The notes beneath the pieces were generated by a model. The model was not told where the DNA came from, ran no database searches, and was given only the letters and a program-made list of their open reading frames with translations. From Panaeolus papilionaceus (lineage: Eukaryota; Basidiomycota; Agaricomycetes; Agaricales), in NCBI GenBank assembly GCA_015501605.1, contig JADNRZ010000021.1, positions 558,001-622,000 of the forward strand: a stretch of DNA of 64,000 bases. Direction: 5' to 3'. Below, piece by piece: positions 2 to 15,183 of this stretch. A program made the translations under genes and the position numbers. Numbering within the stretch: the stretch's first letter is position 1; every line of letters starts with the position of its first letter.

Positions 2-1345
2 AACCTCTCAGATGCCGACTACACCTCATTTATGAGATACTGCACTGAATTCTTTGTTTCAAGCAATCGACTATGGCGAAAGGACCCCAAAGGCGAACAC
101 CGACTGGTGGTTCCACCTCACAAGCGATATTTTATACTTGCTGCTGCGCATAATGACGTTGGACACCATGGCTTCTTTGCTACAAATTCCCTTATTTCGA
201 TTCGATACTGGTGGCCACTCATGGCTCATGATATCGCTTGGTATGTCAAGACTTGTGATCTATGTCAAAAGCATCAACATTGTCAGGTTCTACTACCACC
301 CACCGTCTCACCACCTGCCCCACTCTTCTCCAAAATCTATGCTGATACAATGCACCTTCCAACATCAGGAGGATTCAAATATATTGTCCAAGGTCGCTGC
401 TCACTCTCTCATTGGGTCGAATTCAACATGCTTCGAAGAGAAACTGCTAAAACCATTGGAGAATGGATTATGCATTCATTTGTCTTTCGCTGGGGAACCC
501 TCCTCGAAATTGTGACTGATAATGGTACTCCATTCGTGAAAGCGCTCGCCTACATCGAAAAGCGCTATCATATCAAATGGATCCACATATCAGGCTACAA
601 TTCTCGTGCCAACCTGGCAGAACGACCACATTTCGATGTTCGACAAGGATTGTTCAAGGCTGCTGATGGAGATCAATCGAAATGGTCTTCAGTTGCTTAC
701 TCTGTGTTTTGGGCCGATCGTGTCACCACCTGCCGCCGCATGGGATGCTCACCTTATTTTGCTGTCACAGGAACACATCCCCTCCTTCCTCTAGATGTTG
801 TTGAAGCTAGCTATCTATTACCTCCACCAGATTCAATTCTATCAACCACCGATCTCATTGCTCGTCATGCTATTACCCTTCAGAAACGTTGTGATCAACT
901 CTCCATTCTACACACCAAAGTTTTCGAAGCAAGAAATCGAGCCGCTCGACGATTCGAGGAGCATCACTTTCGCACCATTCGAGACTACAACTTTCACCTC
1001 GGAAATCTTGTATTAATTCGAAACACAGCAATCGAGAAATCGCTGAATCGCAAGATGTGTGCCCGTTATCTCGGTCCACTCATTGTAATATCCCGAAACA
1101 GAGGGGGCGCTTACATTTTATGCGAACTGGACGGCTCCCTTCTCGATCGACCAACTGCTGCCTTTCGTGTCATACCATATTTCGCTCGCACTTCAATTCC
1201 TTTGCCTCCACTCCATGAATTATTGGATGTATCAACAAATCGACTTCGAGAACTCGAAAACTCGACACAAGAAGATCCCGAAGATGACAATGAAGAACTG
1301 GACGACCTTGATGACACTCAAAATCGACTTTCTCAACCAGACTAA
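2..1345 (+). CDS. Ty3/Gypsy Pol, integrase end (5' cut by window edge)
   Basis: This is the C-terminal part of a retrotransposon polyprotein; the integrase inserts element cDNA into the genome. The frame is open from base 2, before the first ATG at 32, so the gene continues outside the window. An H..H..CxxC zinc-binding region (ending TCDLCQKH) is followed by the integrase core with ADTMH, VTDNGTPF and AERPH, which supply D, D and E. A GPY/F-like module (ARYLGPLIVISR) and an acidic tail follow. It aligns along its length with the integrase of the complete element downstream, so the two elements are related families. The last D and E are 34 residues apart, against 35 in the downstream element, and the usual NGK before the E reads NL, so one codon seems lost. 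It may be inactive. Confidence 0.9.
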   Translation, partial: NLSDADYTSFMRYCTEFFVSSNRLWRKDPKGEHRLVVPPHKRYFILAAAHNDVGHHGFFATNSLISIRYWWPLMAHDIAWYVKTCDLCQKHQHCQVLLPPTVSPPAPLFSKIYADTMHLPTSGGFKYIVQGRCSLSHWVEFNMLRRETAKTIGEWIMHSFVFRWGTLLEIVTDNGTPFVKALAYIEKRYHIKWIHISGYNSRANLAERPHFDVRQGLFKAADGDQSKWSSVAYSVFWADRVTTCRRMGCSPYFAVTGTHPLLPLDVVEASYLLPPPDSILSTTDLIARHAITLQKRCDQLSILHTKVFEARNRAARRFEEHHFRTIRDYNFHLGNLVLIRNTAIEKSLNRKMCARYLGPLIVISRNRGGAYILCELDGSLLDRPTAAFRVIPYFARTSIPLPPLHELLDVSTNRLRELENSTQEDPEDDNEELDDLDDTQNRLSQPD

Positions 1346-2633: not shown

Positions 2634-3715
2634 ATGTCTTGTAGGACCTATAGCTGTGACTGTGGCTCCCTGGGGCCAGAGTCGTGTACATGCTCTCCAG
2701 ACCCACCCCCAACCCCATTTACTTTACATCCTATGTATGCTCAAGCTAATGTGCAATACTATCCATCTTATTCATATTATCATCCCTATCCATGTGTGCA
2801 CCCTCATCTACAATCTCATCAACATCATCATGAATCCCCTACAAATCCTTCACCATCACCTGCACTGCTGCAAGCACCACAAGCTCCCCTTGGCTCCATT
2901 ACTAACTTCATCATAAGCACTCCCAACTCAATCGCCACTCGGCAAGCTACCCAATCAACATCTACATCAAAGCGAAAGGACCCGCCTCAGCCAACTGAAA
3001 CTGTAACCCCATCCACATCAAAGCGTCGTCGTCTAGCTCAGCCCACTACCTTATCTTCAAACCACCCTTCCGAAACTTCTCCAGCATACCAGCCACCAGC
3101 AGCATATGGGATTGGGCCACAGATCACACATGGTAGCTCCCATAATGTGCCATCTACACCAGCGGCCCCATTACCTCAACAACAACAACAACCTGGCTTT
3201 TCATATCGTGACAATGTGGATAACCTATCAGCCCTTCACCGATCACTGCTTAAAGCACCAAAGACCAACAACACTGTGGCGACTGATGTTTGGTATTTTA
3301 CTTGCGGTCTCAAATCGGAAGCGCGACCATTGTTATGCCCAGCCAACGAAAAGTGCTCAGTAGAGCGCCCTAGTATGTCAGAGTTCTTGCATCTGGGGTG
3401 CAAGCTTTGCAAGTATGTCAAGTACTTTCCCTTCTGAAGCAGTCTCTTATTAATATGATCTTATTTACTAGATATGAGCAGGCTTGGACAGTGTGGAAGA
3501 ATGGTGCTGGTCAAACAGCAAATATCCGGCACCATCTTCAAACCAAACATGCCAAATTGTGGCGAGAACTTGTCGTCTTGAATGAGTTGAAGGGCTGGAA
3601 GGATTTATCAATGGTGAAAGTGTCAGATGCCTCCACCGCATCACGAGTGCGAGAGCCCTTCACACTTTGCAGGTTTCATGATCAACTAGTCAAGTGGATA
3701 ACAGCTGATGATCAG
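2634..3715 (+). pseudogene. hAT-like transposase, 5' part (exons 1-2), split by a retrotransposon
   Basis: This encodes the N-terminal part of a BED-finger/hAT-type transposase. Exon 1 (2634-3412) gives a Pro/Ser/His/Gln-rich leader. It then reaches CKLCK, the first half of a BED-type zinc finger. A 59-nt GT-AG intron (3413-3471) separates it from exon 2 (3472-3715), which supplies YEQAWTVWKNG and HHLQTKH and so completes the finger. Exon 2 ends in WITADDQ, the start of a motif well conserved in fungal hAT proteins. The next base is the GT donor of intron 2, where the 11.4-kb Gypsy element is inserted. The rest of the gene lies at 15184. The start at 2634 is the first ATG of the frame and is not certain. 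The upstream in-frame sequence is not obviously coding. Confidence 0.7.
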
Positions 3716-3716
3716 G

Positions 3717-4729
3717 TGATGACCCTTGCGGGTACCCAGGCCTGAATTCGCGCGAATTAAAAATTAAAATAAAATAGTATTATTCCAGATACGAGTCGCG
3801 ACTCGTTGTCGGGTGTGAAACAAAAGTAGAATACTGAAACTAAGGTCGCGCGTCTAATAATCCGGAGGCACAGAAGCATTGGATGGGAATGTGACGGAGC
3901 AGGCGTCGCTTTCACACGCCCACCTCCGCTTCAGACTGGTGACGATGTGGACCGACACCTAGCAACGGGGAGGCGCTTGTGCATGGAGTAACACATTATT
4001 GAGAATACTAAATAAAGAAATGACAACGCGACGAGACTTACCTGGACCGACAAGTGACATCAGCCCAGCAAGAAGCTGACTAAAAGCCCCACCCACCTTT
4101 GTAGGGGTCCAATGAAGCCGAGACGAAAGCTTACCAAGCTATGGGGAGACGCCCAATGAAATAGCGACGCCGAGAAAGAGCTGAATAAGCTTGTGTGGAG
4201 CAACTGGTAAGCGATGAAGGGACAAGAAGAAAACGAGGGAAACAGGTGGAACACGACCTACCGAGGTTAATCCGAGGATCACGAGAGAGAGGGAGCAACA
4301 AGGTATAAAAGGAGGGGAGGATTGAGGCGAGAGGGGCATCGAAGAAGCAGAAGAAGGACTAACAGAAGGTAATCAGAAGCCGTTTGCGCGTTGCAGACAC
4401 GTAGGATAGAAGAAATAGAAGTTTTCGTGCGGAGTGCGCGATTGAAGTTAGTGTGATATCAGAAGTCCTAATTTGGAAGTCAGAAGCCAGAGCGCGTGCC
4501 GCGCCCTATTAAACTCAGAAATACCAACCAGAAGTCTAGCGCGACCTTTAGCGCCTGTTTGAAATTAATTTCATATTAGTTCACTCAGTTCTATTGTAGT
4601 CCAACACTCGTTTGTATTCCATTTTCCCCACAACTAATTACAATTGTTTCTACTCTACCTGTTACTCGTGTGACTCGAACTTAGTGTTCTCGCCACACTT
4701 TTGTGGGTGGATTTAGAGCAATCGTATCA
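3717..4729 (+). repeat. 5' LTR of the complete Gypsy element
   Basis: It starts TGATGACCC and ends ATCGTATCA, giving TG...CA ends with near-inverted TGATGA/TATCA termini. GTATAAAAGGAGG at about 4303-4315 is a good TATA box, so U3 would be about 3717-4335 and R-U5 would follow. The small minus-strand reading frames inside occur in both LTRs and are taken as chance. Confidence 0.95.
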
Positions 4730-4731
4730 TC

Positions 4732-4749
4732 TGGAGCCCACCGCGAGGG
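4732..4749 (+). promoter_or_regulatory. Putative tRNA primer-binding site
   Basis: TGGAGCCCACCGCGAGGG begins two bases after the 5' LTR. It starts with TGG, the complement of the CCA end of tRNAs, and lies where minus-strand DNA synthesis is primed. I could not assign the tRNA. Confidence 0.6.
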
Positions 4750-5051
4750 GGAAATTGATTAGAAACGAGCAGCAAGCTCTCTAGAATTGAGCAAACATAC
4801 CTTGTTATTCAGATACAGAAGACGAGATCAGCAATTTACTTGCCAATCTCACCCTTGAAACAGAAGTTGATTACCATAGTTTAGAAGAAGACGAGTCAGA
4901 AGAGGACTCACCTTTCGAGATACCACCAAGAAAAAGCAAGCGTTCGATACAAGCCGGAGTAGAGCCGGGACTTGAGAAGGAACCAAGTTACAGGAGAACG
5001 AAGTCAGTAGCGAGTGCAAGCAGAACAAGGAGCCAAACACTTACCGAAGAT

Positions 5052-6551
5052 ATGACAAACGGAGGAACAGGAACAGGAACGAGTAGTGGCACTCCTCCAG
5101 GAGCACCCATTACAAACGCGACTGTAACTAATAGTCAAGTAGGGTCGCGTGCACGATTCCCAAGCCCTCGAGATAATAATGCACCGAGATTTGATAAAGA
5201 TGAACCTGTGGAATTGACACGGTTCATAATGGAAATGGAAGAATTATTTACAGATTTTGGTATTACGGATGCACGCGATAAGATGAAGAAGATAGTTAGA
5301 TATACTGATAGGGAGACAGAAGACCAGTGGAGAGCCTTACCTTCGTATGGAACAGGTGATTGGGAGAAGTTTAAGAAAGAATTGATTAGGAGCTACCCAA
5401 AGGCTCGAGAAGTGGAAAAAGGGAGTTTGCGTCGTCTTGATGAGGCAGCTCGAAAATACAGAAATTTGACAACTCACCATTCTGACGAAGTGCATGAGTT
5501 AGTGCGCATTTTCCGTGGCGAAGTGAAGAAGCTCGAAGAGCGACAGGCTGTAGGGAAGGGAATTACCTCACAGCGTGAGCTTGTTGAGATGTTCTTCAGA
5601 GCACTCTCACGCGAATTTGTGGAGCGCATCAAGAGCAGCATTGATAATGATTTGACAACGGCACACTATGCTGAGGTCGCGCTGGCGAGATATAATAAGA
5701 CAGCCATTCCGGAGGAGCCAGATTGGTCAAATGAAGAAAGATATACCATAGCGCGAGTGATTCAGCACGCGCAAAAGTTAACAGATGTGTTACCTTCAAG
5801 TGACATGGGAGACTCAAATATGAACTTAAACGTTGCAGGAGGGAGAAATGACACTCAGTCAATCAAAATTGAGGGGCTGAGCGACTTTAAATTATATATT
5901 AATAAACTAGAAGACATGCAGCGGCAGAGCGAGCAACGACAGATGGAAATGTTCGAAAGGTTGATGCAGGAGACCCGTATGCAGTTCCAGAGTATGAGCC
6001 AGGGTCAGGGTGGAGTTCAGAACTCGAACCCGCGGCCCTATGCCCCTGCCTCTAACTCATTTAATGGATCACGCTTTGGGAACTCCAACTTCAACCGACC
6101 GAGAAACCCACCTGTGAATGAACGCGAAGCCGGGGCATGTTATTACTGCAGACGCAAGGACCACTTGTTCCAAGAGTGTCCTTTCCGTCTGGGTGATCGC
6201 GACAATAATAGGATTATTATTGAAAATGGAAAGACACGCTTACCTGATGGGAGTCCGATTCCTCGGTTCCCTGAAGACAAGTCAATGAAAGAAAAAGTGG
6301 ATGATTGGCACAAAAATAGAGAGAGTAATTATCTGGAAGTTGATGAGACAGGGGAATATGTACCTATTACCCCAGATCCTGAGCCTCCGCGAATGTCAAT
6401 CTACACCAATAAAGTCCGTGATCAGCGCGACGAGGTAATTGAGAGATATGCACGTGAAGGTGGAGCTGATGTGGGAGTAAATGGGACGCAAGCAACGCTG
6501 GTGAACACCAGAAATAGGCAGTACCCTGAGAATCAGCAGGGTTTCCGGTAA
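5052..6551 (+). CDS. Gag polyprotein
   Basis: This is the structural protein of the retrotransposon particle, which packages genomic RNA. The 499-aa frame from the ATG at 5052 has a helical capsid-like region (about residues 35-250). A Gln/Met-rich helical stretch is next, and then one CCHC zinc knuckle (CYYCRRKDHLFQEC, about residues 364-377) that binds nucleic acid. The same frame is open upstream to 4791, just after a TGA, without any ATG. That 87-codon extension is rich in acidic and basic residues and looks coding, so Gag may be longer if translation starts elsewhere or the mRNA is spliced; an acceptor-like TTATTCAG lies near 4812. Gag ends six bases after a GGGTTTC slippery heptamer. 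Confidence 0.85.
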   Translation: MTNGGTGTGTSSGTPPGAPITNATVTNSQVGSRARFPSPRDNNAPRFDKDEPVELTRFIMEMEELFTDFGITDARDKMKKIVRYTDRETEDQWRALPSYGTGDWEKFKKELIRSYPKAREVEKGSLRRLDEAARKYRNLTTHHSDEVHELVRIFRGEVKKLEERQAVGKGITSQRELVEMFFRALSREFVERIKSSIDNDLTTAHYAEVALARYNKTAIPEEPDWSNEERYTIARVIQHAQKLTDVLPSSDMGDSNMNLNVAGGRNDTQSIKIEGLSDFKLYINKLEDMQRQSEQRQMEMFERLMQETRMQFQSMSQGQGGVQNSNPRPYAPASNSFNGSRFGNSNFNRPRNPPVNEREAGACYYCRRKDHLFQECPFRLGDRDNNRIIIENGKTRLPDGSPIPRFPEDKSMKEKVDDWHKNRESNYLEVDETGEYVPITPDPEPPRMSIYTNKVRDQRDEVIERYAREGGADVGVNGTQATLVNTRNRQYPENQQGFR

Positions 6552-7561
6552 GTTCGAGGAAGGGAGCAGGTACACGTACCAAGGCACAGCTCCCGGAGAA
6601 CTCAAATAAAGAGTCGCCTACCAAAAGCCCAGAAAAAGATAAAGAGAAAAATAGCTTACCTTATGCTGATCTCTCTGAGATCCAGCCTCGAATTGAGACA
6701 CGAGAGGATTTTGAAGCAAGACAGAAGGAGAGATCATACCGGAATAGAGCTGAAGTTGAAGAAGAGGGATTAGCAAGTAAAGTAGTTGAGAAATTGCTGG
6801 AGTCACCATTTACCTTAACAACAAGAGAGCTTTTGAGTACATGCGCACCAGCGCGTGAACTATTAAAGAAAGCGATAACTCGAACTCGACAGAATGTGAA
6901 GGAGGGTGAAGAAAAGTTAAGACAGTTAGAGATGTTGGAGTGCAACTTGGTGCAGGTGGACGACTTACCTGCACCGACAGTAACCATTCTTACACAAGAG
7001 ACAGAAGGAGTACCTAAAGGCTCGCTTATAGTAAGCGACCCAGTACTTCAATATTTGGAAGACTTAGACCCAGAAGAGGCAAAGCGGAAGGTGTTCGTGG
7101 CTCGAGAATCCCACGGGCTTCGAGCTATCTATCCAATTGTCAATCGAAGTCAGTCTGAAGAAGCTTTATTGGACAGTGGGTCACAAATAATCTCAATGGA
7201 TTGTCGCATCGCGCAATCATTGGGAGTGACTTGGAATCCAGACATTCGTATTCAAATGCAGAGCGCGAATAAACAAGTGGAGAGTACACTTGGTCTTGCC
7301 AGAAATGTGCCATTTAAAATAGGTAACATTGAAGTCTACCTACAGGTACATATTATGCGAGATCCAGCCTACCGTATCCTACTTGGGCGACCATTTGATG
7401 TATTAACTGCAAGTGAAGTGTTGAATAGCACCAACGGTGCTCAAATAATTACTATTACAGACCCGAACTCAGGCGAGAGATGTACAGTACCTACTTATGA
7501 AAGAGGTACTCGCCCACCTGAAATCGAGAATGATTCTTTTCCGAAGACCTCAATGAGCTGA
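6530..7561 (+). CDS. Retrotransposon aspartic protease (separate frame)
   Basis: This frame encodes the retropepsin that cleaves the polyproteins. The catalytic DSG is in ALLDSGSQIISMD (near 7170), and LLGRPFD marks the end of the fold. It has no early ATG; the frame opens at 6530 inside the end of Gag and runs -1 relative to it, so expression by frameshift is likely. About 200 residues of charged helical linker precede the protease. The frame ends at 7561 and overlaps the next frame by 28 nt. Confidence 0.85.
   Translation, partial: ESAGFPVSSRKGAGTRTKAQLPENSNKESPTKSPEKDKEKNSLPYADLSEIQPRIETREDFEARQKERSYRNRAEVEEEGLASKVVEKLLESPFTLTTRELLSTCAPARELLKKAITRTRQNVKEGEEKLRQLEMLECNLVQVDDLPAPTVTILTQETEGVPKGSLIVSDPVLQYLEDLDPEEAKRKVFVARESHGLRAIYPIVNRSQSEEALLDSGSQIISMDCRIAQSLGVTWNPDIRIQMQSANKQVESTLGLARNVPFKIGNIEVYLQVHIMRDPAYRILLGRPFDVLTASEVLNSTNGAQIITITDPNSGERCTVPTYERGTRPPEIENDSFPKTSMS
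6539..6594 (+). promoter_or_regulatory. Candidate -1 ribosomal frameshift signal at the Gag-protease overlap
   Basis: G GGT TTC (6539-6545), read in the Gag frame, fits the X XXY YYZ slippery rule. The Gag stop TAA is at 6549. The protease frame is exactly -1 and is open from 6530, so the heptamer lies inside the overlap. Downstream, GGGAGC (6562-6567) pairs with GCTCCC (6589-6594), and GGTA/TACC (6569-6572 and 6577-6580) can form an inner stem. The 16-nt spacer is longer than the usual 5-9 nt, so the stimulator is less certain than the heptamer. The Gag stop also overlaps a GTAAGT splice-donor match. Confidence 0.6.
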
Positions 7562-10500
7562 TAGAGAGGCAGGGAGAGGTCGCATTGGCAGTTGAGTGGG
7601 ATGGAGAGGGATTGCAATTGCTTGGGTATCGATTACCTGATGCTGGAATGAATTGTTTCAATAAGAAAGACAAGCGCGACGCTTACCTGGAGCTTGTAGC
7701 AATGATGCAGGTCATGGATAACACAGCCCAGAAGCGACTTGATGCTTACCTTAACCAGAAATATGAAGGATTGAACCAACCTTCAGAAAAGGAGGCAAAG
7801 CGAAGTGTAATGGGGAAGTATGTGGTAGGGAGGCAACCTGTGAGAAGTCAATTTGGGAAGTATAAACCCGTAGCACTGAAGGTTCGACCTCAATTCCGTG
7901 ACTTACCTCCGGAATTTAGAATTATTCGAGACATTAGAGGCGACCCGTTAGCCGAAATGCCACCGTTGAGTAAAACTCCGGGGGATTTTAAACCAACTGG
8001 TCGCTATACACAGGAGAGAATGGAAGAGATGGATAAGGCACACAAGGGAGACTTCCTGTGGCCTGAAGAACGAAAATTGCTACATGAGTTCATGATGAAG
8101 AATAGCGAAGCGTTTGCTTGGGAGGATAGCGAACGAGGACATTTTAGGGAGGACTTCTTCCCACCTGTGAAAGCACCAGTAGTTGAACATAAGCCCTGGG
8201 TGATGAAGAACATACCCATCCCGCCAGGGTTGTATCGAGAAATCTGTGATATTATTATGACAAAAATAAAAGCCGGAGTTTACGAACCAACCAACTCATC
8301 CTATCGAAGTCGTTGGTTTGTGGTGTTAAAGAAAAATGGAAAGCATCGAATAGTGCATAGTCTCGAACCTCTAAATAAGGTTACGATTGCACATTCAGGC
8401 TTACCACCAGCAACCGAGACACTTGCAGAGAACTTCGCAGGAAGAGCATGTGGCGGAATTTTAGACTTGTATGTGGGATATGATGAGCGCAAGTTGGATG
8501 AATCGTCGCGAGACTTGACAGCGTTCCAGACACCATTCGGAGCGCTAAGATTAACCACGCTACCAATGGGATGGACAAACTCAGTCCCGATCTTTCATGA
8601 CGATGTGACTTATATCCTACAGGACGAAATTCCAGATTACACAATTCCATATATTGATGATGTCCCTATTCGAGGACCTAAAACTAGATATGAACTACCA
8701 GATGGAGGGTATGAGACGCTTCCTGAGAATCCAGGAATACGAAGATTTGTGTGGGAACATTTCCAGAATGTAGCGAGGATAGTACAGAGGATGAAGTACT
8801 GTGGAGGGACGTTCTCAGGTCACAAGTCAATCCTCTGTGCAGAAGAAATTACGGTAGTAGGACATTTGTGCACTTATGAGGGACGCAAAGCGTCGCCTGA
8901 TGCCCTATGGTCTCTCAAAAATTGGAAACCATGTGAAAGCGTAACAGACTTAAGGTCATTTATGGGTACGATGGTCGCGCTACGGCCATACATCCCTAAT
9001 TATGGGGCTAAAATTGAAGTGTTGCAACGCTTATTAAAAGCGAACACACCTTGGCAGTGGGGAGAGGATGAGCAGAAGTGTATGGATGATATTAAGGCTG
9101 CTCTGGACCATACTGTATGCCTAAGACCTATAGATTATGAGGCAGATGGCGCAGTGGTACTAGCAGTTGACACATCTTACATAGCAGTTGGGTATTATAT
9201 CTACCAAGAAGACCCAACCGCACCAAATGGAAAGAGATATGCCCGTTTTGGTTCCATACCTTTGGAAGAACGCGAAACACGATTCTCGCAGCCAAAGCGG
9301 GAGCTATTTGGACTTATGACAGCGTTGAACGCTTGTGAACATTGGTTGAAGGGATGCCGGAAGTTAATTGTTGAGACTGATGCTTCTTACATCTTTGGAA
9401 TGCTTAAGAATGCGGGACTTGGTCCAAATGCGACAATAAACAGATGGATTGATACCATTTTAATGTTTCAATTTGAATTAAGACATGTAAAAGGGAAAAC
9501 CTTCGCCGCAGATGGACTGTCGCGACGAAGCCCAAGTGATGAAGATCCTGTAGAGCGAGTAAGAAGGGAGGACGAGGCAGATGAAGAGCCATTAGGCCCA
9601 CCTGTACTCACCAAGAAGTTCGAAACGGATCCAGATCCACTGGATTTCGAAGATTTCAAGATAAATATTGATACAAGGGGTGGATACCTTGTAGCGAAAG
9701 CTGGGGAAGGGTGTGCAAGGAGTGTTGAAGAATTTAAAGAGGATTTGAGTCGTGCAAAGCGACAGGCTGAGGAGGAGTTGGTGCTGTGGCAAGCAGCAGC
9801 AAAGAAGGAGCACCGAAAGGTCAAGAAAACCATTCGAGAGCGAGTATTAGTGTTATCCAACTCGATTAAAAGTATCGAGATGGACGTCTCGAAAGCAAAT
9901 GAAGTGACTTACCCAGAGGAACATCGCACTGTAACAGCGCGACTGCAAGATGATAAGCTACCAAAGATAAAAACATGGTTAGCAAATCCAACACCAGAGA
10001 TTGAAGGATTGTCATATAAAGAGACACTTAACTTCAAGCGCTCTGCAGGAGCGTTCTTCTTGGATAATGACAGCAGATTGTATCGACGATCTGTAGATGA
10101 TAAACACAAGTTAGTGGTTGAAAAGTCAAAGAGGATGTGGGTACTTAGTAGCGCACACGACGCACTAGGACATAGAGGCTTTTACGCGACGAAAACATTG
10201 ATCGGAGAGCGATTTTGGTGGCCTGAGTTTGAGCGCGATGTGAGCTGGTATGTGAAAAGCTGTCACATATGTCAAGAGCGACAGAAAGAAATGATAGCTA
10301 TTCCACCTACCTTAACTCATACGCCGTCGCTCTTCCAGAGGGTGCACATAGACACAATGCACATGTCACCACTATCCAATGGTTGCAAGTACATTGTACA
10401 TGCCAGAGACTCATTGTCTTCATGGCCAGAAGCGAGAGCACTGAGGCGCGAGACCGCTAAGTCAATCGCTAACTTTATCTTTGAAGACTTACTGTGTCGT

Positions 10501-11364
10501 TGGGGTTCTATTAGAGAGATAGTGACAGACAATGGAACACCATTCAGAGCTGCGCTGGCATGGTTAGCGCAGAAATACGGGATCAAATACATTCGAATCT
10601 CACCTTATAACTCGAAAGCGAATGGCAAGATCGAACGCCCACATTGGGACATTCGACAAATGCTCTATAAAGCGACAGGGGGTGATGTTTCGAAATGGTA
10701 CTGGTTCCTCAATCATGTGCTGTGGTCGGACAGAGTGACAGTTAAGAAGGGCACTGGATGCTCACCTTACTTTTTGGTAACTGGAGCGCACCCAGTGTTA
10801 CCGTTAGACCTTGTTGAGGCAACCTGGTTAGTGAAGCTGCCAGACCGAACCTTGACAACAGCGGAATTGGTTGGATATCGAGCGCGTGCACTTGCGAAAC
10901 ACAAAGCGCATGTGGATGAAATGATAGCGCGTGTGGATGAGCGCAAGCATAGAGAGCTGGAGGAGTATGAAGCTAAAAATAAGCACAGAATTAAAAATTA
11001 TAAGTTTAAGAAAGGAGACTTGGTGATGGTTCGAGATACGAGTATCGAGGGATCTCTGGACAGAAAAATGAAAGGGAGATACCTTGGACCGATGGTTGTA
11101 TTGGCAAGGCTCGAGGGGGGAGCTTACATTGTTGCAGAACTGGATGGCTCAGTCTGGCAGAATCGCGTGGCTGCATTTAGGGTTGTACCTTATGTAGCGC
11201 GACGAAAAATAGACTTACCTCCAGACTTAGAAGAATTCATGGATATCAGTTTGGAAGAATTAAAGAAATTGACTAAGTTATATGATGTCGAGAGAGACCC
11301 TAACGAAGATTTTATCTTTGGAGCTACGAAGTATGAAAGAAAAATGATTAAAGGGCGTCAATAA
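7534..11364 (+). CDS. Pol: reverse transcriptase, RNase H, integrase
   Basis: This polyprotein copies element RNA into DNA and integrates it. The frame opens at 7534; residues here are counted from 7585 because no ATG lies near the start. The RT has LPMGWTNS and the catalytic YIDD (Y356). RNase H shows AVDTSYIAVG, KRELFGL, VETDASY and FAADGLSR, so its D-E-D-D set is present. The integrase has the H..H..CxxC finger (KSCHICQERQ), then D923, D982 and E1017 in DTMH, VTDNGTPF and NGKIERPH, and a GPY/F-like module (GRYLGPMVVLAR). No chromodomain is visible. It is -1 to the protease frame with a 28-nt overlap, but I see no good slippery heptamer there. Its last 17 bases overlap the end of the convergent antisense gene. 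Confidence 0.95.
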   Translation, partial: FFSEDLNELIERQGEVALAVEWDGEGLQLLGYRLPDAGMNCFNKKDKRDAYLELVAMMQVMDNTAQKRLDAYLNQKYEGLNQPSEKEAKRSVMGKYVVGRQPVRSQFGKYKPVALKVRPQFRDLPPEFRIIRDIRGDPLAEMPPLSKTPGDFKPTGRYTQERMEEMDKAHKGDFLWPEERKLLHEFMMKNSEAFAWEDSERGHFREDFFPPVKAPVVEHKPWVMKNIPIPPGLYREICDIIMTKIKAGVYEPTNSSYRSRWFVVLKKNGKHRIVHSLEPLNKVTIAHSGLPPATETLAENFAGRACGGILDLYVGYDERKLDESSRDLTAFQTPFGALRLTTLPMGWTNSVPIFHDDVTYILQDEIPDYTIPYIDDVPIRGPKTRYELPDGGYETLPENPGIRRFVWEHFQNVARIVQRMKYCGGTFSGHKSILCAEEITVVGHLCTYEGRKASPDALWSLKNWKPCESVTDLRSFMGTMVALRPYIPNYGAKIEVLQRLLKANTPWQWGEDEQKCMDDIKAALDHTVCLRPIDYEADGAVVLAVDTSYIAVGYYIYQEDPTAPNGKRYARFGSIPLEERETRFSQPKRELFGLMTALNACEHWLKGCRKLIVETDASYIFGMLKNAGLGPNATINRWIDTILMFQFELRHVKGKTFAADGLSRRSPSDEDPVERVRREDEADEEPLGPPVLTKKFETDPDPLDFEDFKINIDTRGGYLVAKAGEGCARSVEEFKEDLSRAKRQAEEELVLWQAAAKKEHRKVKKTIRERVLVLSNSIKSIEMDVSKANEVTYPEEHRTVTARLQDDKLPKIKTWLANPTPEIEGLSYKETLNFKRSAGAFFLDNDSRLYRRSVDDKHKLVVEKSKRMWVLSSAHDALGHRGFYATKTLIGERFWWPEFERDVSWYVKSCHICQERQKEMIAIPPTLTHTPSLFQRVHIDTMHMSPLSNGCKYIVHARDSLSSWPEARALRRETAKSIANFIFEDLLCRWGSIREIVTDNGTPFRAALAWLAQKYGIKYIRISPYNSKANGKIERPHWDIRQMLYKATGGDVSKWYWFLNHVLWSDRVTVKKGTGCSPYFLVTGAHPVLPLDLVEATWLVKLPDRTLTTAELVGYRARALAKHKAHVDEMIARVDERKHRELEEYEAKNKHRIKNYKFKKGDLVMVRDTSIEGSLDRKMKGRYLGPMVVLARLEGGAYIVAELDGSVWQNRVAAFRVVPYVARRKIDLPPDLEEFMDISLEELKKLTKLYDVERDPNEDFIFGATKYERKMIKGRQ

Positions 11365-12596
11365 GCGCACGAAGATGATCACGAGTGCGAGTCAAGACTT
11401 CAATGCGGACATCGAAGTATTTGATCTCAGCCTCAAGATCAGCGACGGCGTTACGAGCACCCAGAGAAGAGGAATCGTCGAGACGAGTCCTCTTGCCAAG
11501 CGACGAAGAACGGAATGAGGGAAGTGATTTGAACTTGAGAAAAGAGGGAGATGTTAAGTCCAAGCCAGGAACCTCGGTATACGAAAGGAAACATACCTCC
11601 GGTTTGGCCGGGCCAGATGAAGCGACAGATTTGGTCTGGACATTCAAACGAGTTAGTCTGGATTAAGTGGAAATAAATACTAGACTTACCAAAGAGCTGC
11701 GAGACGAACCAGAAAGGACAACAGAGCCAGGGTTACTGCTGGAGCGATGACCTTTGGAGCCAGAGGATGAAGCAGATGCAGTGGGAGCGGAATCGTTCGA
11801 AGGAGTGGTGGACTCAGTTGCTCCACTGGCATCTGACATGACAACGTCGTTGTCCTGAGTAATAGTAACCTGGGGGTCCTTAGGCGTAACGGAAATGGTG
11901 GAGACAGTCTTAGGGATGTTGATATCAACATCAGAGTCGTCTGCACCCTCTGGAACGTATTTCGGGGTCTTGGTACGAGAGCCCTTGGTGCGACGAGTAG
12001 CCTAGAAGACAATAAACAATATTAGAATGCAATTGTGACAGGAAGGAGAACTATGCTTACATTGTGACGGTCAGCCGCAGGCTCGGTTGGAATTGAGACA
12101 TTAGCATCAGTGGCAGGATTGGAAGCGGGAGAGGAAGAAGTGTTGGAATTGGAAGTGGTGGAAGAATCGGTGGCCTTAGCGGCCTCGCGCTGAAGGTGAA
12201 TCGCCTTGGTGAACTCGGTGATGGCATGATAAACCTTGGGGAACTTGAAATCGGTGCCTTGATGGTGTGGCCCATGATTAAATTCGGACTCCAGGTCGTA
12301 GTAGAGATCGCGGATAGCAAAGATTGCGTCCACTTTCTCCTTATCGGACCAGAGCGAATCAACGTAGGGACGCCAGAGCAACTGAACGATAAAATAGCCA
12401 TCAGAAATTAATAGAGACAAAAATAAAGAAAGGAGAAACTCACTGCTAACTCAGCGGCAGAGTTCAGCCAGACCAGGCGCATGGAAAAGGCGGTGGTAGG
12501 AAGTTTACCACTCTTCCGATCAACATATGCCTTGGACATAAAGACCTTGACATCAGCGACAGTAGGGAGGTCAGTAGGAAGAGATGAAGAGGACAT
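11348..12596 (-). CDS. Antisense accessory gene 2 of the Gypsy element (four exons, unknown function)
   Basis: This spliced gene runs against the retrotransposon between pol and the 3' LTR. Exons: 12596-12444, 12381-12061, 12001-11690 and 11635-11348. The introns (62, 59 and 54 nt) are GT-AG and all phase 0, giving one frame of 357 aa. An in-frame 63-nt GTATGT...AAG stretch within the last exon might be optionally removed. The first 125 residues are Trp/Tyr-rich and helical (LVWLNSAAEL, LWRPYVDSLWSDKEK). A long Ser/Thr/Asn-rich section follows, and the C-terminus (ADLEAEIKYFDVRIEVL) looks like a short coiled coil. I do not recognise the family. A TATAAATA box lies 77 nt before the start. Its introns can survive retrotransposition because the element's own RNA carries them in reverse. 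Confidence 0.75.
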
Positions 12597-12672
12597 AGTG
12601 AAATGAGCTTCGAAATATCAATGGAACTGGACAATGCGAGATGATGAGGCGTCGTGAGGGTGTAAGCAGGGG

Positions 12673-12680
12673 TATTTATA
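12673..12680 (-). promoter_or_regulatory. TATA box of antisense gene 2
   Basis: TATAAATA on the minus strand, 77 nt upstream of the ATG at 12596, at the normal distance for a fungal promoter. It lies in the short gap between the two antisense genes, so gene 2 probably has its own promoter. Confidence 0.6.
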
Positions 12681-12823
12681 CCTCACAGAGATGATTTCGA
12701 ACGAAATAACTTGTACTATTGGAGCTACGCTAGGGTACACGTCATCCTAGGGACTAAGACGAAGTAGCTACATGAAATAAAACAAGGAAATTGGTCCGAA
12801 AATTGAGAGGTGAAGTCATAGGG

Positions 12824-13916
12824 TCAGTCGGCACCGGAGACAAGGGGTTGCTGACGTTCGAAACGAGCACAAGCTCGCCCTTGAGCTCGATCGCGATGAC
12901 GAGTTGAGGGAGCGGTTTGGTTTGTTGGGAGTGCAGTGGTGGTGTTGGATCGCTCCGCTTCGTTGGACAGTTCGTACCAGGATGTGAGCGGCTGAAGGAA
13001 GCGATAACTAAGTGAATAAGAGAGAAATAGGAAGATAAAGACAACAGTAAAACTTACCAATGACGCATCGCCTTGAGGAACCGGCGCGTTCAGAGCGTTG
13101 CTGAGGTTTGGTTTGGGCCTGTTAGAGGGAAACATAGCGATCCTGGATAAAATGGAAGCTTGAACAGCTTCGAAATCGCGATCCAAAGGAAGGTGGTTGG
13201 ATTTAAACCAGCCTCGAAGCTTTGAAAGACCCGTAGCGACGAACTTCCAGTCAGCAGGGTGGGAGCGGCGATTGTGGGGTGCTTCGAGCTCGTGTTGCTA
13301 GAAAGAAAGTGTTTAAGAAAGACAATGTAAAACAAGGAGGAAAGCCATACCAGGGCAGGAGTAAGGACGCGTACGAAGTCCTGAACCAGATTAGGAGACC
13401 AAAGCGTGGTGAGCCGAAGGAAATTGGCATCAGCCAACCAGTAGAACGGAGGAGTATGAGCAGGAGCGCTTCGAGTGGCGAGAGATTCATCTCCTCCAAG
13501 CCAACGACAGACTTGGAGGGACGATTCGGTCATCTCGAGACGAAACTGACCCACACCTTTGGGACAATTAGGGAGGCAGAGTAACTCGAGAGAATGCATG
13601 ACAGTGGGAGGTGGAAGCTGAGGGAATAAAAGATGAAGTCGATCGAGGAGCGCGTAAATGACCTTAGCGCGACCGGCGACAGCATCTGAGACGATATTGG
13701 GGTCATTGCGAGAAAGCTGAAACAAAAATGATGAAGCCAAGAGACATACAACAGTAGGGGAGAGAGACTTACCAGCTGGTGAGCGCTCATGCTCAGCAAG
13801 TGCTGGACACGAGACGCCTCAATAACGCTCCCTATCTTGCGGAACGAAATAAGCTGCCAGGCAGTGAGCAAGTTGACATCGAGCGGTTCGAAAATAGAAG
13901 CAGGAGGAGAAGACAT
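12824..13916 (-). CDS. Antisense accessory gene 1 of the Gypsy element (four exons, unknown function)
   Basis: Exons: 13916-13773, 13716-13351, 13297-13058 and 12991-12824. The introns (56, 53 and 66 nt) are GT-AG and all phase 0. They join into one 305-aa frame with no stop. An in-frame ATG at 13955 was not chosen, because a CTATAAAG box sits only a few bases before it; transcription starting about 30 bases from that box would begin after 13955. Visible features are a helical, Leu-rich middle (VIYALLDRLHLLFPQLPPP), several Trp residues and a basic, polar C-terminus. No signal peptide, membrane segment or catalytic motif is seen, so an envelope protein is unlikely. I do not recognise the family. 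It lies in tandem with antisense gene 2. Confidence 0.75.
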
Positions 13917-13958
13917 CGTACAGTTTGGTTTGCAATGGGGAGGGCGGATGCGCATGCC

Positions 13959-13966
13959 CTTTATAG
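13959..13966 (-). promoter_or_regulatory. TATA box of antisense gene 1
   Basis: CTATAAAG on the minus strand, 43-50 nt before the preferred ATG at 13916 and about 150 bp inside the 3' LTR boundary. It decides the start choice for antisense gene 1. Confidence 0.5.
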
Positions 13967-14071
13967 TAATGACGCGCGCAGACCGAACGCTATGGAATGC
14001 GCTGGAAAGCGAGACTTAGGGTTGCGCATATAATTCAAAATTGCAAATCGGAGCTATCATTCGCTTAAGTC

Positions 14072-14108
14072 AAGGCTGAGGACAGCCTTATTTTTGGTTG
14101 GGGGGAGA
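14072..14108 (+). promoter_or_regulatory. Stem-loop plus polypurine tract of the complete Gypsy element
   Basis: AAGGCTG (14072-14078), loop AGGA and CAGCCTT (14083-14089) form a perfect 7-bp stem. ATTTTTGGTTGGGGGGAGA follows and ends at the LTR. The layout matches 1501-1537 although the stem sequences differ, which suggests the structure itself is conserved. Confidence 0.65.
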
Positions 14109-15121
14109 TGATGACCCTTGCGGGTACCCAGGCCTGAATTCGCGCGAATTAAAAATTAAAATAAAATAGTATTATTCCAGATACGAGTCGCGACTCGTTG
14201 TCGGGTGTGAAACAAAAGTAGAATACTGAAACTAAGGTCGCGCGTCTAATAATCCGGAGGCACAGAAGCATTGGATGGGAATGTGACGGAGCAGGCGTCG
14301 CTTTCACACGCCCACCTCCGCTTCAGACTGGTGACGATGTGGACCGACACCTAGCAACGGGGAGGCGCTTGTGCATGGAGTAACACATTATTGAGAATAC
14401 TAAATAAAGAAATGACAACGCGACGAGACTTACCTGGACCGACAAGTGACATCAGCCCAGCAAGAAGCTGACTAAAAGCCCCACCCACCTTTGTAGGGGT
14501 CCAATGAAGCCGAGACGAAAGCTTACCAAGCTATGGGGAGACGCCCAATGAAATAGCGACGCCGAGAAAGAGCTGAATAAGCTTGTGTGGAGCAACTGGT
14601 AAGCGATGAAGGGACAAGAAGAAAACGAGGGAAACAGGTGGAACACGACCTACCGAGGTTAATCCGAGGATCACGAGAGAGAGGGAGCAACAAGGTATAA
14701 AAGGAGGGGAGGATTGAGGCGAGAGGGGCATCGAAGAAGCAGAAGAAGGACTAACAGAAGGTAATCAGAAGCCGTTTGCGCGTTGCAGACACGTAGGATA
14801 GAAGAAATAGAAGTTTTCGTGCGGAGTGCGCGATTGAAGTTAGTGTGATATCAGAAGTCCTAATTTGGAAGTCAGAAGCCAGAGCGCGTGCCGCGCCCTA
14901 TTAAACTCAGAAATACCAACCAGAAGTCTAGCGCGACCTTTAGCGCCTGTTTGAAATTAATTTCATATTAGTTCACTCAGTTCTATTGTAGTCCAACACT
15001 CGTTTGTATTCCATTTTCCCCACAACTAATTACAATTGTTTCTACTCTACCTGTTACTCGTGTGACTCGAACTTAGTGTTCTCGCCACACTTTTGTGGGT
15101 GGATTTAGAGCAATCGTATCA
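14109..15121 (+). repeat. 3' LTR of the complete Gypsy element
   Basis: It is 1,013 bp and reads as identical to the 5' LTR at 3717-4729, including the TATA box. CAGG at 15122 repeats the target site, and the hAT-like gene resumes right after it. Confidence 0.95.
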
Positions 15122-15183
15122 CAGGTGAGTATATCATTATCATGTCCACCATGCTGCATATTGATAATTGAGCTTTTCGGAAG

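What the first reader, a model, noticed from the sequence alone, without database searches (positions are those of the whole stretch)
11348..13966. Two spliced antisense genes carried inside a Ty3/Gypsy retrotransposon
Between pol and the 3' LTR of an apparently intact 11.4-kb element lie two tandem minus-strand genes (12824-13916 and 11348-12596). Each has four exons, GT-AG introns of 53-66 nt and a TATA box, and each joins to a clean frame (305 and 357 aa). Introns on this strand would not be spliced from the element's genomic RNA, so they can persist through reverse transcription. Antisense ORFs are known in some plant Gypsy lineages, but I do not recognise these proteins. They may be regulators of the element, captured host genes or a new accessory module.
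Basis: partly seen in the sequence, partly recalled or inferred. Interest (0 to 1): 0.9.

Follow-up and report, generated by a model that had tools for sequence, protein, structure and literature searches.

The report
Spliced antisense genes inside mushroom retrotransposon
A family of retrotransposons in the mushroom Panaeolus papilionaceus carries two extra genes on its reverse strand, each predicted to be split by introns; selection has preserved their protein sequences, so the proteins likely help the element control or complete its own life cycle.

Summary
A Ty3/Gypsy element (3717-15121; both LTRs 1013 nt and identical) carries two minus-strand genes between pol and the 3' LTR: A (305 aa) and B (357 aa), each joined from four exons by three phase-0 GT-AG introns. 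Five further near copies in the same genome keep all six splice sites; A is open in 6 of 6 copies, B intact in 2 of 6. Homologues of A and B lie antisense beside pol in diverged families of the same genome (pol 61-77% identical over the integrase end), with two A introns and the first B intron at identical alignment columns. dN/dS is 0.11-0.13 between two diverged elements, and 0.13-0.33 in 26 of 27 informative near-copy pairs. Protein searches found homologues only from Panaeolus. A related family (pol 50%) has no room for the module. So this is a conserved accessory module, not a chance ORF or a recent capture. Antisense aORFs are known from plant Gypsy elements and from Boty (brtn): a new variant of a known kind. 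No RNA evidence was available; the function (likely regulation) is inference.

The parts
3717..4729 (+). 5' LTR (1013 nt, TG...CA), identical to the 3' LTR; TSD CAGG at 3713-3716
5052..6551 (+). GAG frame, 499 aa
   Evidence: no significant Pfam hit; identified by position and by similarity to GAG frames of related elements
6530..7561 (+). protease frame (gag-asp_proteas)
   Evidence: Pfam PF13975 E 7e-07; open frame limits
7534..11364 (+). POL frame: RT, RNase H, integrase; last ~14 codons altered by a deletion at 11320/11321
   Evidence: Pfam Integrase_H2C2, RT_RNaseH_2, RT_RNaseH above cut-off, RVT_1 below its cut-off (E 7.5e-05)
12824..13916 (-). gene A, 305 aa, four exons, including stop
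13773..13916 (-). gene A exon 1
13351..13716 (-). gene A exon 2
13058..13297 (-). gene A exon 3
12824..12991 (-). gene A exon 4
13960..13965 (-). TATA box of gene A (TATAAA, -49 from ATG), inside the internal region and not in the 3' LTR
11348..12596 (-). gene B, 357 aa, four exons, including stop
12444..12596 (-). gene B exon 1
12061..12381 (-). gene B exon 2
11690..12001 (-). gene B exon 3
11348..11635 (-). gene B exon 4; encodes the C-terminal leucine-zipper-like coiled coil
12673..12680 (-). TATA box of gene B (TATAAATA, -84 from ATG)
14100..14108 (+). probable polypurine tract GGGGGGAGA before the 3' LTR
   Evidence: read by eye
14109..15121 (+). 3' LTR; TSD CAGG at 15122-15125

Best explanation
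The Ty3/Gypsy element at 3717-15121 carries two tandem minus-strand genes, A and B, whose protein sequences are under purifying selection in sibling copies and in a related pair of diverged elements, and which are predicted to be transcribed from their own TATA promoters, spliced by the host and translated into accessory proteins that likely regulate the element. Shown by sequence: position and orientation, open spliced frames, splice sites kept in six copies, shared intron columns in diverged families, dN/dS far below 1, and absence of the module from a related family. Inferred: because the element's genomic RNA is the plus strand, the introns appear there as reverse complements and would not be spliced, so they survive reverse transcription. 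Predicted: A is two helical bundles with a disordered tail; B is a helical head, a disordered Ser/Thr-rich linker and a C-terminal leucine-zipper coiled coil. Most likely mechanism (inferred, about 0.35 by itself): B dimerises through its zipper and, with A as a helical partner, modulates LTR-driven sense expression or a later nuclear step, in the manner of antisense retroviral regulators such as HBZ and the APH proteins. The module looks like an exchangeable cassette: copies show different histories for pol, A and B, as expected from template switching.
For: Open spliced frames and 6 of 6 GT-AG phase-0 introns; all six introns GT..AG in 6 of 6 copies; A without stops or frameshifts in 6 of 6 copies. 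dN/dS (NG86): A 0.21-0.25 in the 12 of 15 near-copy pairs that have synonymous changes; B 0.13-0.33 in 14 of 15 pairs; C56 against C21: A 0.127, B 0.106, POL 0.062. A and/or B antisense beside pol in C56, C21, C67 and C52; C52 A against window A scores 135, best of 1000 shuffles 62. A intron columns 60 and 192 are shared by 4 of 4 elements in the alignment (window, C56, C67, C52), column 133 by 3 of 4 (absent in the window); B intron column 53 by 3 of 3. TATA-like motif at -44 to -85 in 18 of 18 upstream regions tested (permissive motif set, no shuffle control). NCBI model P0010 equals my C67 A model for 282 of its 294 residues. Panaeolus cyanescens has A (49% over 99-100% of the query in two proteins) and B (48-53% over 99-100% in three) and, in two cases, A and B have consecutive locus tags and equal contig lengths. 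The C11 family (pol 50%) has its LTR about 0.62 kb from the end of the pol match. A model pTM 0.72; B zipper heptads in window, C56 and C67. No sequence reaches 1.8 in a 19-residue hydropathy window (16 of 16), which argues against an env-type protein.
Against: No RNA or protein data: transcription, splicing and translation are unobserved. B is broken or cut in 4 of 6 near copies: +1 insertions in L005 and L006, small deletions and the contig end in L003, a nested element in L004; the L005 copy still has a long open POL frame (1277 aa), so B may not be needed in cis. One B pair (L002-L003) has dN/dS 1.16, on nine differences. A evolves fast (about 30% identity where POL is 67%), and C52 A against C67 A scores 54, reached by 4 of 1000 shuffles. 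B introns 2 and 3 do not all share columns, nor does A intron 3. The regulatory role rests on analogy: no domain and no solved sequence relative for A or B, and no Foldseek match at E <= 0.001 for A; a KR-rich cluster of the pattern I scanned occurs in 1 of 7 B and 0 of 9 A sequences, so nuclear location is weakly supported. That the P. cyanescens genes lie in an element was not tested.
Confidence: 0.6

Rival explanations
1. A and B are structural or particle-borne accessory proteins (assembly, import of the preintegration complex, integration targeting) rather than regulators of expression.
For: A is predicted to be a compact helical protein and B a zipper protein with a disordered linker; selection acts on both. 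Several retroviral accessory proteins act at such steps (recalled).
Against: Separate antisense promoters would uncouple their supply from gag-pol (inference). The fold comparison of A was inconclusive and does not decide.
Confidence: 0.25
2. The antisense transcripts themselves are what matters (double-stranded RNA or interference with the sense RNA); the frames are by-products.
For: Antisense RNA regulation is discussed as an option for plant aORFs (PMC7264820, passages); spliced A and B RNAs would pair with the genomic RNA (inference).
Against: dN/dS of 0.11-0.33 in all informative pairs but one, and the excess of third-position changes, show selection on the proteins.
Confidence: 0.07
3. 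Recently captured host genes carried as passengers by one element.
For: Multi-intron structure with own TATA boxes looks like ordinary host genes.
Against: Homologues sit in the same place and order in several diverged elements with shared intron columns, and the 6 protein homologues of A and 4 of B that were found are all Panaeolus (in 14 and 44 only the 7997 and 7995 best candidates were scored). The four diverged own-genome places that I read lie beside pol. An ancient capture is not excluded.
Confidence: 0.05
4. The gene models are chance open frames in a 2.6-kb spacer.
For: Only gene prediction supports them; no RNA.
Against: Splice sites in 6 of 6 copies, low dN/dS, matching NCBI model P0010, 48-53% homologues over nearly the whole length in a second species.
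Confidence: 0.02

Closest known systems
Antisense aORFs of plant Tat-type Gypsy elements (maize Grande gene23, rice RIRE2, Silene Retand; TRP28 and SMC-like proteins)
   Different: Host is a basidiomycete; no Pfam family, TRP28 included, matches A or B above cut-off; two multi-intron genes with conserved intron positions, whereas the word intron does not occur in the main text of either paper (the 2020 review calls for a look at antisense and spliced transcripts).
brtn of Boty-like elements in Botrytis cinerea and Sclerotinia (Zhao et al. 2011)
   Same: A fungal LTR element with an extra antisense gene (cited in PMC7264820, PMC8365987 and PMC4227169, passages).
   Different: Element with a chromodomain in an ascomycete (host class recalled) and one such gene named. 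The Zhao paper is not held, so its sequence and intron structure could not be compared.
HBZ and APH proteins of primate T-lymphotropic viruses
   Same: Antisense regulators with spliced transcripts; HBZ is a bZIP protein (PMC10186651, passages).
   Different: The HBZ promoter is TATA-less and in the 3' LTR, and APH-2 transcripts also start in the 3' LTR; here TATA boxes lie in the internal region, there are two genes with three introns each, and no basic region of bZIP type was seen before the zipper (by eye).
Intron-containing genes moved by Penelope-like elements in bdelloid rotifers
   Same: Introns survive a retroelement cycle; an antisense template is suggested as one reason (PMC3846280, passages).
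   Different: Those are host genes mobilised in trans, not a conserved part of an LTR element.

Membership tests
Ty3/Gypsy LTR retrotransposon | two LTRs, TSD, and PR-RT-RNaseH-IN domain order | tested here: met
   (RVT_1 matches below its curated cut-off; the others are above)
aORF-bearing LTR retrotransposon (antisense, pol to 3' LTR) | extra antisense frame between pol and 3' LTR | tested here: met
aORF-bearing LTR retrotransposon (antisense, pol to 3' LTR) | present in most copies and conserved under selection | tested here: met
   A open in 6 of 6 near copies, B intact in 2 of 6; the copies were found by searching with the module itself, so copies without it were not counted
Plant Retand/Grande antisense aORF proteins | TRP28 (PF04195) domain | tested here: not met
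   Pfam scans of window A and B and of 9 A and 7 B sequences, no such hit
Boty brtn | sequence similarity to BRTN | not tested
   paper not held; no Botrytis protein among the hits
HBZ-like antisense bZIP regulator | leucine zipper | tested here: met
   heptads in B of window, C56, C67; long helix 311-348 in the P0006 model
HBZ-like antisense bZIP regulator | antisense promoter in the 3' LTR | tested here: inconclusive
   TATA motifs lie in the internal region, but start sites are unknown
HBZ-like antisense bZIP regulator | represses sense LTR transcription | not testable with these tools
   needs a reporter assay
Env-like accessory gene | transmembrane segment | tested here: inconclusive
   no 19-residue window reaches 1.8 in 16 of 16 sequences; two exceed 1.6; no dedicated predictor run

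The most novel reading that the evidence does not exclude
A clade of mushroom Gypsy elements has an HBZ-like two-protein control system encoded entirely on the antisense strand as an intron-marked cassette: A and B form a zipper-based regulator of the element's own expression or integration, and the cassette swaps between elements by template switching, while its introns record that it travels only through the sense genome and are lost only when a spliced antisense RNA is copied back.
Probability: 0.2. Interest if true: 0.85.

Novelty: new variant of a known kind. Interest (0 to 1): 0.62.

Why it matters
Antisense extra genes of LTR elements are described mostly for plants in the two papers I saw passages of, and their roles are unknown (PMC7264820, PMC11963269). 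Here is a fungal case with two proteins, intron positions conserved across diverged families, and a copy young enough (identical LTRs) that transcripts can be sought. Because the host is a fungus, expression and localisation tests are practical. The introns give a natural marker of which RNA strand has passed through reverse transcription: one intron of A (column 133) is absent, without loss of flanking codons, from the window copy, which could reflect copying of a spliced antisense RNA, or gain in the others.
Full report
Check of the observation. The element is bounded by two LTRs of 1013 nt, identical to each other, at 3717-4729 and 14109-15121, with a 4-nt duplication CAGG. GAG, protease and POL lie on the plus strand, with Pfam hits to protease, RNase H and integrase above cut-off and to RT below it. 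B ends 17 nt inside the POL frame of this copy.

Near copies. A search of the window's own genome (50.9 Mb, 71 contigs) with the 2.6-kb region found eight places: the window, five near copies at 94-98% identity (L002-L006), one diverged place (L007, on C37) and one piece (L008) on the contig of L004. Aligned to the window, all six introns are GT..AG in 6 of 6 copies. A has no frameshift or stop in 6 of 6; its only length change is +3 nt in three copies. B is intact in 2 of 6 (window, L002); L005 and L006 have a one-base insertion, L003 has small deletions and is cut by the contig end, and L004 is interrupted by another LTR element. The four pieces in which the pol/B border could be compared (L002, L005, L006, L008) have 124-128 nt more than the window at 11320/11321, so the window copy has a deletion that changes the last ~14 codons of POL. 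The copies were found by the module itself, so copies of the family without it would have been missed.

Selection. By NG86, A gives dN/dS 0.21-0.25 in 12 of 15 pairs (the other three have no synonymous change); B gives 0.13-0.33 in 14 of 15 pairs and 1.16 in one pair with nine differences. These pairs share ancestry and are not independent. The separate pair C56-C21 gives A 39 synonymous changes in 222.5 sites against 17 in 680.5 (0.127, Fisher 2.5e-13), B 43/253 against 16/797 (0.106, 4.0e-16) and POL 0.062. A and B are thus constrained, somewhat less than POL.

Diverged families. Protein searches of the genome gave weaker hits on C37, C56 and C21 (A) and C67 (B). Fetched and read, these four lie beside pol on the opposite strand. 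C56 and C21 have complete A (301 aa) and B and are close to each other; C67 has A, and B if one extra intron is allowed; a further element, C52 (pol 61%), has A over four exons and a B that I could model only in part, with in-frame stops (B by tblastn E 4e-04). C52 A against window A scores 135 (best of 1000 shuffles 62), but against C67 A only 54, reached by 4 of 1000 shuffles. C37 has a decayed A and no recognisable B, next to a pol 94-96% identical to the window's. An element on C23 (911 kb; pol 54%) has a B-like stretch found by eye: its score is reached by 1, 0 and 0 of 2000 shuffles against window, C67 and C56 B, and its best tblastn E is 0.012, so it is suggestive only. A introns fall in alignment columns 60 and 192 in 4 of 4 elements and in column 133 in 3 of 4, the window lacking it; B intron 1 is in column 53 in 3 of 3; A intron 3 and the other B introns agree less well. 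TATA-like motifs lie at -44 to -85 in 18 of 18 upstream regions examined; L003 B, L004 B and C37 were not examined, the motif set was permissive and no shuffle control was run.

Limits of the clade. Over a 397-residue integrase-side query, elements in which I found A or B have pol 100-61% identical to the window's, or down to 54% if C23 is counted; 104 of 208 candidates were scored. The C11 family (50%) has its LTR about 0.62 kb from the end of the pol match: of 43 match rows to a 701-base query from behind its pol, 41 touch the first 344 bases, as expected of LTRs, and 10 reach beyond (40 of 77 candidates scored). Stretches behind pol in C8 (49%) and at the start of this window (49%) gave no A or B. 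Other families at 41-49% were not read.

Proteins elsewhere. The search of 5.8 billion proteins gave 5 hits for A, 4 for B and 6 for the A profile, all named Panaeolus; for B and the A profile only the best 7997 and 7995 candidates were scored. In P. cyanescens, A and B have consecutive locus tags (CVT24_010886/010885; 010995/010994) and equal contig lengths (9581; 9546), so the pair is linked there; whether pol lies beside them was not tested. No P. papilionaceus B model appeared in the results. P0010, an NCBI model whose contig length is that of C67, equals my A model for 282 residues, then ends in a short exon that I had not modelled.

Structure. A, folded as P0001 with 12 rows, gives mean pLDDT 75, pTM 0.72: helices from about 10 to 121 and 137 to 225, and a low-confidence tail. 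B, folded as P0006 with 7 rows, gives a helical head (15-107), a low-confidence middle and a long C-terminal helix (311-348), pTM 0.35. That helix has hydrophobic residues at every seventh position in window, C56 and C67. A and B are not detectably related. No fold relative could be named.

Exchange between copies. Over A codons L003 equals L005, while over 261 B codons it differs from L002 by nine changes. L005 and L006 are 99.85% identical to the window over 9973-11320 of pol, but 92-93% over 11321-15121, which holds B, A and the 3' LTR; L002 has dS 0.388 in pol but 0.06-0.07 in A and B. C37 pairs a near-identical pol with a strongly diverged A. Pol, A and B therefore have partly separate histories, as expected of template switching during reverse transcription (inference).

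How it likely works. The minus-strand genes have their own TATA motifs and introns, so they would be read by host polymerase II and spliced, independently of the LTR promoter. The genomic RNA carries the introns in reverse complement and keeps them. B would dimerise by its zipper. I favour a regulatory role, by analogy with HBZ and APH proteins (PMC10186651, passages) and with the nuclear protein of Grande (PMC7264820, passages); this last step is the weakest.

Known or new. Antisense aORFs between pol and the 3' LTR are known in plants and in Boty. In my searches I found no description of such genes in basidiomycetes, nor of conserved multi-intron antisense genes in Gypsy elements; the library holds open-licence papers only, and the original Boty paper could not be read. 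I rate it a new variant of a known kind.

Noticed in passing
window 6530-6551 and 7534-7561: GAG, protease and POL lie in three successive frames, each -1 to the last, with short overlaps; a slippery heptamer G GGT TTC stands in the GAG frame just before the GAG stop, but none of the usual form was seen at the second overlap (heptamers by eye).
   Followed up: partly
window 11320-11321: The window copy lacks 124-128 nt that four near-copy pieces have between pol and B, changing the end of POL.
   Followed up: yes
window 2634-3716 and 15122 onward: The element is inserted in what looks like a hAT or BED-finger transposase gene, at a splice-donor-like CAG/GTGAGT (by eye, not searched).
   Followed up: no
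window 32-1345: 3' end of another Gypsy pol, 49% identical over the integrase side, without A or B found behind it.
   Followed up: partly
L004 and L008 (contig C46): A C11-family LTR element sits inside exon 4 of B of this copy.
   Followed up: yes
L072 (contig C23, 912501-916000), reverse strand: Behind a pol of 54% identity lies another antisense frame of about 166 aa preceded by a Cys-rich stretch (CVTCASK...CAPC), unlike A; possibly a different cargo protein (by eye).
   Followed up: no
L074 (contig C8), minus strand positions 5-706: A sense frame of 234 aa continues or follows pol in a related family.
   Followed up: no
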